This document shows, piece after piece, positions 5,267-6,524 of a stretch of 9,063 bases of DNA; within the stretch, counting starts at the first letter, position 1; every line of letters begins with the position of its first letter. The DNA comes from Lachnospiraceae bacterium (GTDB lineage Bacteria > Bacillota_A > Clostridia > Lachnospirales > Lachnospiraceae): NCBI GenBank assembly GCA_017464045.1, contig JAFUEG010000031.1, positions 1-9,063 of the forward strand. Reading direction: 5' to 3'. The notes beneath the pieces were generated by a model. The model made no database searches. It saw only the letters and a list, made by a program, of their open reading frames with translations, and was not told where the DNA came from. The position numbers were made by a program, and so were the translations under genes.

Positions 5267-5488
5267 ATGATTGTATATACCAAATTATGGGAAACCATGA
5301 AGAAAAAAGGCATAACACAATATGCCCTTATTAAAAAATACAAAATAAGTCCTTCACAAATCACACGATTAAAAAGGAATGAGAGCGTCAGTACACACAC
5401 CATAGATGTATTCTGCAAAATCTTAAAATGCGACTTAACTGACATAATGGAATTTATAGATGATGGCGATATCGAAATAATCCCATAA
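5267..5488 (+). CDS. Small Cro/CI-type (XRE, HTH_26-like) transcriptional regulator
   Basis: A 73-residue protein that is almost entirely one helix-turn-helix domain. It has a first helix YTKLWETMKKKGI, then ITQYALIKKY, the recognition region ISPSQITRLKRNESVSTHTI and a closing helix DVFCKILKCDLTDIMEFI. The length and the 'L...CKILKCDLTDIMEF' ending are typical of minimal HTH_26 regulators in Clostridia. The ribosome binding site is weak (AAGAAAGCG), so expression is probably low. It is divergent from the membrane protein/lipoprotein operon, whose promoter contains ATATCGGTTA boxes about 50-90 bases upstream. It is the natural candidate for their binding protein. No partner toxin or phage gene adjoins it. 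Confidence 0.88.
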   Translation: MIVYTKLWETMKKKGITQYALIKKYKISPSQITRLKRNESVSTHTIDVFCKILKCDLTDIMEFIDDGDIEIIP

Positions 5489-5551
5489 ACAATTTAATTA
5501 TAATATTAATCTACTGCGTTACCACACATAACCTTCCTTCGTTCAATTAAT
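5489..5551. other. Short AT-rich spacer after the regulator
   Basis: I see no gene, promoter or clear terminator here. It separates the regulator from the long palindrome that follows, and transcripts from the regulator would run into that palindrome. Confidence 0.5.
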
Positions 5552-5932
5552 CACACTGCTGTGGCTCACCATGAACCTTCGGCTTTTCATCACGCGAAGC
5601 GTGTCGGCTGAATATGGGTATAACTGCTTGATTAAACAAACATAATTGGCACATAAAAAATACAGGTATATATAAGGACCGTTGCGAGACGCGTTCACTT
5701 AGCGAAAAGCAGGAAAATCAAAAAAAGATGAGAACTTTCGTTCACGAAAAAAGTTCTCATCTCTTTTTTTGATTTGAGTGATTTGAGGTTAGTGAGCCTG
5801 CGTCGAACAAGAGCGAGAGCGCGTCCTTGATATACCTGTATTATTTATGTGCCATCAATACCTTAATCCAAGCAGTTATACCCTACCGATTCAGCCGACC
5901 ATCTGTAAGTAAAAAGGAGCCACAGCACTGTG
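5552..5932. repeat. 381-bp imperfect palindrome (giant hairpin), possible MITE or structured RNA
   Basis: Complementary blocks occur in nested order: 5552-5567 with 5917-5932 (15 of 16), 5604-5613 with 5889-5898 (10 of 10), 5616-5635 with 5863-5883 (20 pairs, one bulge), 5648-5679 with 5823-5853 (about 30 pairs, one mismatch, one bulge), 5709-5713 with 5797-5801, and 5715-5738 with 5750-5775 (24 pairs, 2-base bulge). Internal loops between blocks are unequal, and the left arm carries its own small hairpin CACGC-GAA-GCGTG (5591-5603). No open frame of note lies inside. The strict nesting over the full length is far beyond chance. It could be a miniature inverted-repeat transposable element, a large structured RNA, or a fold-back duplication. 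No obvious target-site duplication flanks it. Confidence 0.8.
5720..5770. terminator. Bidirectional intrinsic terminator at the centre of the palindrome
   Basis: GATGAGAAC-TTTCG (5727-5740) pairs with CGAAA-GTTCTCATC (5745-5761, three extra A) around a TTCA loop. Seven T's (5764-5770) follow on the plus strand, and seven A's (5720-5726) give seven T's on the minus strand. Both directions therefore have a strong stem plus T-tract. It would stop readthrough from the regulator on one side and from the ribosomal operon on the other. Confidence 0.8.
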
Positions 5933-5942
5933 ACTCCCTTTT
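5911..5942 (-). terminator. Terminator of the ribosomal alpha operon
   Basis: AAAAAGGAGCCACAG (5911-5925) pairs with CTGTGACTCCCTTTT (5928-5942) over 15 positions including two G-T wobbles. On the minus strand the 3' arm ends in TTTTT. It starts 34 bases after the rplQ stop, the usual place for the operon's end. Bases 5917-5932 also form the outer right arm of the long palindrome, so the two structures compete. Confidence 0.8.
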
Positions 5943-5975
5943 AACCTTTATCATATATAATGCAGACTAATCTGA

Positions 5976-6524
5976 TTATACAAGCTCAAGTATAACCTTC
6001 ATAGCACCGTCGCCACGACGCTCACCAATCTTAACGATTCTGGTGTAACCACCGTTACGACCTGCATACTTAGTACCATATTCGTCAAATAACTTTGCAG
6101 TTAAATCAACCTTCTTAGTACCTGCCTTCTTACCTGCAGCATCAGTAGGTACCTCAACAACAGGATATAAAATCTGAAGCATCTGTCTTCTTGCATGAAG
6201 TCTTGATGGCTGATCCTTCTTGATGGTCTTTTCTACCTCATCATACTGAGTTATCTTCTTTTTCTTACCATCAACCTCGATAGTCTCTTTGATTCTCTTT
6301 CCATCCTTATCCTTCTTAGCAACCTAAGCAGATACGGTAACCTCATCATAGTTATCCTTTTCCTTAACAGCTAAAGTGATAAGATGCTCAGCAATCTTTC
6401 TAACTTCCTTAGCTCTTGCCTCAGTAGTCTCAATTTTGCCGTGATATATTAACTGTGTTACCTGATTACGAAGTAAAGCCTTTCTCTGATCAGCTTTCTT
6501 ACCAAGTTTTCTATACATTGCCAT
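5976..6524 (-). CDS. rplQ: 50S ribosomal protein L17, interrupted by an in-frame TAG
   Basis: L17 binds 23S rRNA near the exit tunnel in the large subunit and is the usual last gene of the alpha operon. The start is ATG 6524 after TAAGGAGG (6540-6533). The N-terminal core is present ([20 protein letters not shown], then [25 protein letters not shown]), as is the C-terminal core ([39 protein letters not shown] end). Between them is a Lys-rich insertion of roughly 50 residues relative to the 127-residue E. coli protein, a form I recall from Lachnospiraceae. Codon 67 (6326-6324) is TAG, and the same frame then continues uninterrupted for 115 codons to TAA. No indel is needed. Explanations are a point mutation from CAG, AAG or GAG, an error in the sequence, or readthrough. 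Because L17 is normally essential, a true null would be surprising. A GC-rich mini-hairpin CCCG-TGGC-CGGG (6541-6552) abuts the ribosome binding site. Confidence 0.9.

What the first reader, a model, noticed from the sequence alone, without database searches (positions are those of the whole stretch)
5552..5932. A 381-bp nested palindrome next to the ribosomal operon
Six complementary blocks in strict nesting fold almost the whole segment into a single long hairpin with unequal internal loops. Length and order exclude chance. It holds no gene. Possible identities are a MITE-like element, a novel large structured RNA, or a fold-back duplication. Bulges and substitutions keep most pairing, which hints at selection or recent origin.
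Basis: seen in the sequence. Interest (0 to 1): 0.7.

Follow-up and report, generated by a model that had tools for sequence, protein, structure and literature searches.

The report
Dispersed giant hairpins at gene ends
The long palindrome beside the ribosomal genes is one copy of a family of modular, non-coding DNA hairpins found at many gene ends in a small group of related Lachnospiraceae bacteria, probably a spreading element that also serves as a gene-end stop signal.

Summary
The palindrome is real: both strands fold about 13 standard deviations better than shuffles. The element is about 310 bp (5591-5900); the outermost arms are the rplQ terminator and an inverted partial copy of it. 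It is not single copy: matches occur in 9 of 37 genomes of the genus, one of them weak, with 20 scored matches (the cap) in two. Elsewhere in the family the end pattern is near control level, G001 excepted. Aligned copies share a mini-hairpin C(GNA)G and a TCGG/CCGA clamp; inner modules differ, even at one locus. Pairs co-vary strongly (93.7% paired against 77.1% shuffled; 55 of 76 pairs with double changes). The tip looks like a two-way terminator in 17 of 22 copies. In 32 of 38 copies a gene ends within 80 nt of one side, against 3 of 34 on the other; a subfamily's tail begins exactly at the stop codon in 34 of 51 cases. Best reading: a non-autonomous, modular interspersed repeat (MITE/BOX/SPRITE-like) of a family I found no description of, tolerated at transcript ends. 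No target-site duplication and no mobilising enzyme were found.

The parts
5551..5567 (+). Inverted partial copy of the rplQ terminator (outermost left arm); not part of the repeat element
   Evidence: pair I4, 94% complementary to 5917-5933; the corresponding flank differs in the other copies printed, except a partial likeness at the same locus in G006
5591..5603 (+). Boundary mini-hairpin CACGC-GAA-GCGTG (C-GNA-G triloop)
   Evidence: loop G and A and the closing C-G pair are invariant in the 23 copies aligned; copies were partly found by this motif, which favours it
5603..5675 (+). Left outer arm: clamp GTCGG, then covarying stems (CTGAATAT, GGGTATAACTGC, TGGCACAT..TACAGGTATAT)
5676..5707 (+). 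Inner module B, left half (GGACC..GACGCGTTCACTTAGCGAAA), conserved in sequence
5717..5773 (.). Apical hairpin with A-run on one side and T-run on the other; terminator-like on both strands; sequence differs between copies
   Evidence: 17 of 22 copies with A-run and T-run of 4 or more; the simple scanner did not call it
5782..5826 (+). Inner module B, right half (TTTGAGGTTAGTGAGCCTGCGTCGA..GAGCGAGAGCGCGTCC), conserved, with a small GNRA-type hairpin
   Evidence: helices 6 and 9
5827..5899 (+). Right outer arm ending in CCGAC
5911..5937 (-). Terminator of rplQ (stem 5916-5937, T-run 5915-5911 on the - strand); host sequence, not part of the element
   Evidence: similar terminator in relatives without the element
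5267..5488 (+). Convergent neighbour gene, Cro/C1-type HTH (PF13443)
   Evidence: a like neighbour lies across the element in G006
5976..6524 (-). rplQ (ribosomal protein L17), upstream gene of the element; reading frame interrupted in this window

Best explanation
The palindrome is one copy of a lineage-specific family of non-coding, modular interspersed repeats that fold into very long nested hairpins. SHOWN: dispersed copies; shared ends (C-GNA-G mini-hairpin plus TCGG/CCGA clamp); different inner modules inside like ends, also at one locus; covarying arms; a fixed side and orientation relative to the gene whose stop codon lies beside it; rplQ ends without it in relatives. INFERRED: the family spreads as a non-autonomous mobile element (MITE/BOX-like), moved in trans by an enzyme not identified here. 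Insertions are tolerated just past transcript ends, and the element's own tip acts as a two-way transcription terminator, so it can stand in for a lost native terminator. Arms stay complementary because of templated correction between them and/or selection on the folded single strand. Hairpins are repeatedly shortened, swapped inside, and used as rearrangement points.
For: Divergent yet paired: 93.7% of cells paired against 77.1% shuffled and 34-44% slid; 55 of 76 pairs with double changes. Placement: a stop codon within 80 nt on the right in 32 of 38 copies, on the left in 3 of 34. Stop-codon tail: 39/35/40 matches in G017/G032/G035 against 3/3/5 control matches; 34 of 51 tails read start exactly at the stop codon and 9 more within 10 nt. 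At the one tailed gene compared, a terminator-like hairpin follows the stop codon in G001, G006 and G015. Same locus with module B in window and G001, module B' in G006. Terminator-like tip in 17 of 22 copies. Copies at different loci of G032 up to 94-95% identical over 290-308 aligned positions.
Against: No target-site duplication could be shown: at the rplQ locus the far-side gene differs between genomes with and without the element, and at the RT locus G017, which lacks the hairpin, also lacks about 50 bp beyond it (read by eye). No transposase sharing the ends was seen, but this was not searched systematically. Y1 transposases (PF01797) are in 8 of 37 genomes: present in G006 and G018, absent from the copy-rich G017, G032 and G035. 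The simple terminator scanner found nothing in 5480-6000, probably because of its loop limit of 8; it also missed the rplQ terminator stem. At the tailed gene compared, no obvious hairpin follows the stop codon in G014, G018 and G028. Exact abutment to stop codons is more than an ordinary MITE predicts. The genomes are in many contigs, so copies at contig ends are truncated.
Confidence: 0.72

Rival explanations
1. A large structured RNA (or a single-stranded DNA intermediate) made from the + strand, that is antisense to the neighbouring gene; its folded form is what is selected, and its spread is secondary.
For: Strong covariation; conserved internal-loop sequences and invariant GNA triloop in the aligned copies; G.T over A.C on the + strand at single mismatches within helices: 45:10:10 cells and 27:10 distinct contexts on strand-neutral pairs.
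Against: No G.T excess in aligned pair columns (26:26) and almost none in pairwise substitutions (846:772, not independent). No Rfam match at gathering threshold; only sub-threshold matches, many of them microRNA or snoRNA models. No sigma-70-like promoter found in 5480-6000. Copies within a genome vary by whole modules.
Confidence: 0.2
2. A 3' UTR structure of the upstream gene's mRNA (- strand), a giant terminator or stabiliser, kept by selection at each locus.
For: Fixed orientation to the upstream gene (32 of 38 against 3 of 34); same loci occupied in several genomes (for example the gene I read as guaB in G001, G006, G015 and G017); at the one tailed gene compared, the terminator-like hairpin of three relatives is missing where the tail abuts the stop codon.
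Against: At rplQ and at the RT locus the element lies beyond a terminator-like hairpin with its T-run. Wobble asymmetry, where present, favours the other strand. The rplQ ends of G017 and G032, as close to the window as G001 is (96% each), lack it. Like copies lie at unrelated genes.
Confidence: 0.15
3. A fold-back duplication accident at rplQ.
For: The outermost arms are an inverted partial copy of the rplQ terminator.
Against: Core hairpin with the same ends and module B at many unrelated loci.
Confidence: 0.02
4. Product of reverse transcription: cDNA-like hairpins written by the UG26-type reverse transcriptase found in the same lineage and inserted at transcript ends.
For: A hairpin copy lies just upstream of the RT gene in G015, G032 and G035, and a partly deleted one in G006. 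RT at 53% identity or more in 7 genomes (G006, G014, G015, G017, G018, G032, G035), all among the 9 matched; weaker relatives at 40% in G033 and 33% in G021. Precedent: msDNA-like chromosomal repeats in Nannocystis (titles seen only in the reference list of PMC6868368).
Against: The RNA next to the RT is RF03026 RT-5 in the three loci scanned and shows no clear similarity to the hairpins (best E 0.076, to another locus). RT not found in G001 or G011. Co-occurrence is confounded by shared ancestry. Hairpins are not perfect palindromes.
Confidence: 0.05

Closest known systems
BOX elements of Streptococcus pneumoniae / S. suis (PMC3049150, passages read)
   Same: Small interspersed modular repeats in Firmicutes; boxA and boxC form the rest of a stem-loop around a variable number of boxB modules; over-represented between convergent genes; regarded as non-autonomous mobile elements
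   Different: Different organism; no shared sequence was looked for. Here about 300 bp nested hairpins with different inner modules, terminator-like tip, C-GNA-G boundary hairpin, and in one subfamily a tail beginning at the stop codon
SPRITE (Rho-independent-terminator-like element) and RUP of S. pneumoniae (PMC3049150, passages read)
   Same: SPRITE is a terminator-like interspersed repeat strongly enriched between convergent genes; BOX, RUP and SPRITE form clusters
   Different: SPRITE is an 18-bp duplex with a U-rich tract; here the terminator is only the tip of a much longer hairpin
REP/BIME and CGTC-/GTAG-tagged palindromes (PMC3733652, passages read)
   Same: Palindromes located downstream of genes, dimers folding into larger hairpins; CGTC ones without a dedicated transposase
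   Different: REPs are 20-40 bp with a GTAG or CGTC tag; the words Firmicutes and Clostridi do not occur in that paper's text. Here the conserved ends are others, and Y1-type genes do not track the element
Prokaryotic MITEs (PMC10969869, passages read; definition also in PMC3049150)
   Same: Short, inverted-repeat ended, multi-copy, highly paired
   Different: No target-site duplication or parent transposon shown; asymmetric boundary hairpin; variable interior at a fixed locus

Membership tests
MITE | Short non-coding element in many dispersed copies | tested here: met
MITE | Terminal inverted repeats | tested here: met
   outermost long helix 98.4% paired in the 23 aligned copies; but one end has an extra mini-hairpin
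MITE | Target-site duplication on insertion | tested here: inconclusive
   no clean duplication at the RT locus (read by eye); at rplQ the far flank is not syntenic
MITE | Parent transposon with the same ends | tested here: inconclusive
   not sought systematically; only Y1_Tnp and RVT_1 were searched by family; many repeats lie at contig ends
REP / RAYT system | 20-40 bp palindrome with GTAG or CGTC tag | tested here: not met
   element about 310 bp; conserved ends are C(GNA)G and TCGG/CCGA
REP / RAYT system | Associated Y1 transposase in the genome | tested here: not met
   PF01797 in 8 of 37 genomes; in G006 and G018, but not in G001, G011, G014, G015, G017, G032 or G035
BOX-like modular repeat | Outer paired modules around variable inner modules | tested here: met
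   module B, B', others or almost nothing inside like outer arms
BOX-like modular repeat | Sequence homology to boxA/boxB/boxC | not tested
   no BOX sequence was fetched
Known structured RNA (Rfam 15) | Covariance-model match at gathering score | tested here: not met
   0 matches in the window; sub-threshold matches only
Retron / UG RT-associated RNA | RNA conserved next to the RT and related to the repeats | tested here: not met
   RT-5, RF03026, in the three RT loci scanned; no clear similarity of the 7 RNA sequences to the hairpin loci

The most novel reading that the evidence does not exclude
A hairpin-based mobile system that targets transcript ends and even the stop codon itself: its outermost tail (TAAATTCCGGTTTRTCSGG) takes the place of the native terminator exactly at the stop codon of dozens of genes per genome, sometimes of both convergent genes. 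Further palindromes nest inside it, and the folded + strand (with its C-GNA-G mini-hairpin, recalled to be extra stable in DNA) is the recognised single-stranded form, so that gene partners are reshuffled at these joints.
Probability: 0.17. Interest if true: 0.75.

Novelty: new variant of a known kind. Interest (0 to 1): 0.5.

Why it matters
The best described modular interspersed repeats of Firmicutes that I found in print are streptococcal. Here, in a Lachnospiraceae lineage, such repeats have grown into roughly 300-bp nested hairpins that in some genomes seem to have taken over gene ends, with a tail beginning at the stop codon. If confirmed, they would be a natural case of mobile terminators and of insertion directed to stop codons, and a good system for asking whether long palindromes keep their arms alike by template switching. 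They may also explain why these draft assemblies often break at gene ends.

Tried and rejected
Exact patterns of module B and of the element end in IMG/VR: no match. Tail pattern in IMG/VR: one contig, near its end. BLAST of the element against phages and plasmids: none. Y1 transposase as mobiliser: not correlated. Reverse transcriptase as mobiliser: adjacency at one locus, but the conserved RNA there is RT-5 in the three loci scanned and not similar to the hairpins. I first took that RNA for the terminator of the gene I read as glyS; one search corrected this. L190 against L211 was first read as an empty site of a nested insertion; it may equally be a hairpin deletion, so it is not used as proof. 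Wobble-strand counts gave mixed answers, all reported. One search timed out and was replaced. One search found no element because of an off-by-one error and was replaced. In one search the automatic tip finder missed the true tip in several copies, so its count (11 of 24) was replaced (17 of 22; one of 23 rows not parsed). In one search, 39 copies entered; flanks under 400 bp and repeated flanks were dropped (38 right, 34 left kept); three copies (L115, L160, L203) had their right end set too early by the script, L115 among the six misses.

Full report
The observation. The window's palindrome is confirmed. One search lists five nested inverted-repeat pairs between 5551 and 5933. fold the segment on either strand at -169 and -164 kcal/mol, z about -13.5, with none of 100 shuffles as stable. 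No ORF of 60 aa or more lies in it, and no Rfam family reaches its gathering score. It sits past the 3' end of rplQ (Ribosomal_L17), with a Cro/C1-type HTH gene convergent from the other side.

It is a repeat. The closest relative found is the MAG RUG13380 (L001, genome G001; RpoA 99% identical). Searching five related genomes gave 8 matches in G001, at four places, and none in the other four. The boundary pattern is found in 7 of 17 chosen genomes, with zero matches for the reversed pattern. In 397 genomes of the family the shorter end pattern has 39 listed places, six of them in G001, against 24 for the reversed control; I did not read the other 33. So the family looks confined to one clade of the genus. 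No copy was found in phage or plasmid records or, for two of the three patterns tried, in IMG/VR (the tail pattern hit one viral contig).

Anatomy. Reading the window's + strand, the element begins with a mini-hairpin CACGC-GNA-GCGTG (loop N varies; loop G and A, and the closing C-G pair, are invariant in the 23 copies aligned; copies were partly found by this motif). Then comes GTCGG, pairing with CCGAC at the far end; then covarying stems; then a conserved inner module B; then an apical hairpin whose sequence differs between copies. It is self-complementary in four of the five copies printed; the fifth has lost one half. In 17 of 22 copies it has an A-run of four or more on its 5' half and a T-run of four or more on its 3' half, as in a bidirectional intrinsic terminator. 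The plain scanner reports none here; its loop limit of 8 probably excludes this hairpin, and it also missed the rplQ terminator stem.

Modules are exchanged. Other copies have module B' or B'' or almost nothing inside like ends. At the rplQ locus window and G001 carry B while G006 carries B'; window and G006 have a like far neighbour gene, G001 another. At the locus upstream of a reverse transcriptase, G035 has a 49-bp remnant, G032 a 151-bp copy and G015 a 322-bp copy with B'.

Covariation. On 23 copies, 93.7% of cells form standard pairs (shuffled 77.1%, slid 34-44%); 55 of 76 pairs show changes on both sides. Which strand folds is unsettled. Isolated mismatches within helices favour G.T over A.C on the + strand (45:10; 37:10 cells and 27:10 distinct contexts on strand-neutral pairs), but aligned pair columns give 26:26 and pairwise substitutions 846:772 (each pair counted in both directions). 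The counts are not independent. Near-absence of wobble intermediates in the outermost helix (one G.U cell), and double changes between close copies, also fit templated correction between arms at the DNA level.

Placement. In 32 of 38 copies with enough right flank, an ORF of 90 codons or more ends within 80 nt of the right side, pointing at the hairpin; on the left this holds in 3 of 34. A subfamily carries a tail of about 23-27 bp between hairpin and gene. The tail pattern occurs 39, 35 and 40 times in G017, G032 and G035 against 3, 3 and 5 for the reversed control; in G001, G006, G014, G015 and G018 it occurs 12, 6, 7, 8 and 5 times against 1, 0, 2, 1 and 1. Of 51 distinct tails read in the fetched stretches (a chosen part of the listed places), 34 begin exactly at the stop codon of an ORF of 60 codons or more, 9 more within 10 nt, 4 lie 17-112 nt away, and 4 had no such ORF. 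In one case (L301) two tails meet back to back between two convergent genes. In G001, G006, G014, G015 and G018 the two genes lie on different contigs, and in G035 about 2.4 kb apart. In G001, G006 and G015 the first gene has another convergent partner, and its stop codon is followed by an unrelated terminator-like hairpin; in G035 the tail follows it; in G014, G018 and G028 neither is obvious (read by eye). So this joint coincides with a rearrangement, and the repeat there stands where three relatives have a terminator. Arrays of 74-bp tandem repeats adjoin several copies. Many tails lie within 80-280 bp of contig ends, as expected if near-identical repeats break the assemblies.

Is it mobile? 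Dispersal, like copies within one genome (up to 94-95%) and rplQ ends without it in close relatives (of the 30 loci read, only those of G001 and G006 carry it; 7 of 37 genomes were not read there) argue for spread. A target-site duplication was not shown, because no clean filled/empty pair with both flanks syntenic was found. Y1 transposases do not track it. A UG26-type reverse transcriptase does occur in 7 of the 9 genomes matched (class by PADLOC), and a copy lies beside it in three of them and a partly deleted one in a fourth. But the RNA there is RT-5 (RF03026) in the three loci scanned, it is not clearly similar to the hairpins, and shared ancestry explains the co-occurrence. I therefore leave the mobilising enzyme open.

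Comparison. The closest described relatives in kind are the pneumococcal BOX, RUP and SPRITE repeats (PMC3049150, passages read): modular or terminator-like, concentrated between convergent genes, clustered, regarded as non-autonomous mobile elements. REP/CGTC palindromes (PMC3733652, passages read) also lie downstream of genes but are 20-40 bp. Two paper searches with Lachnospiraceae and repeat terms listed no title or abstract start describing this family; that is a statement about the 23 papers listed by those searches of an open-access library. The exceptional stability of GNA-loop DNA mini-hairpins is recalled, not looked up. Gene names guaB and glyS are my reading of the sequences and were not run through a family search.

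Verdict. A new variant of a known kind: a clade-specific modular giant-hairpin repeat at gene ends, probably a non-autonomous mobile element doubling as a terminator. The stop-codon anchoring of one subfamily is the unexplained and most interesting part.

Noticed in passing
L383:1141-1274 and 1567-2784 (G032); also G006, G014, G015, G017, G018, G035: A UG26-type reverse transcriptase (best PADLOC model PDLC03764 in the five copies scanned from G006, G014, G017, G032, G035) preceded by a 134-145 nt RNA-like sequence in all 7 genomes; Rfam RT-5 (RF03026) in the three loci scanned. The nearest functional analogues read about are DRT9/DRT10 (PMC12632851, passages).
   Followed up: partly
window 5976-6524: rplQ reads as two pieces in this window: first stop after 66 codons, against 178-182 codons in 29 of 31 loci of 30 relatives. 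Sequencing error or real interruption not decided.
   Followed up: partly
left flanks of L082, L083, L084, L099, L105, L110, L117-L120: Arrays or partial arrays of 73-74-bp palindromic tandem repeats of two main sequence kinds near the hairpins.
   Followed up: partly
L004, L009, L266, L267, L273, L275, L278 just after rplQ: Other, apparently unrelated palindromic repeats sit just past the rplQ terminator in other genomes (read by eye), so gene-end palindromes may be common in Lachnospiraceae.
   Followed up: no
L301; G017:C98:52333-52375: Two stop-codon tails back to back form a compact two-way terminator-like hairpin joining genes that lie on different contigs in five relatives.
   Followed up: partly
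L105 and L110, and L287, L297, L305, L370, L371: A further hairpin family behind the same tail (GTCGATTATAGAGCATGGTATG and the like), not analysed.
   Followed up: no
G035:C12 (L382:1556-2839): A group II intron maturase (TIGR04416, 424 bits against a cut-off of 300).
   Followed up: no
L377 (IMGVR_UViG_3300024272_002718) 100-118: The only exact match to the stop-codon tail pattern in viral contigs, near a contig end beside phage-like genes (gene nature read by eye).
   Followed up: no
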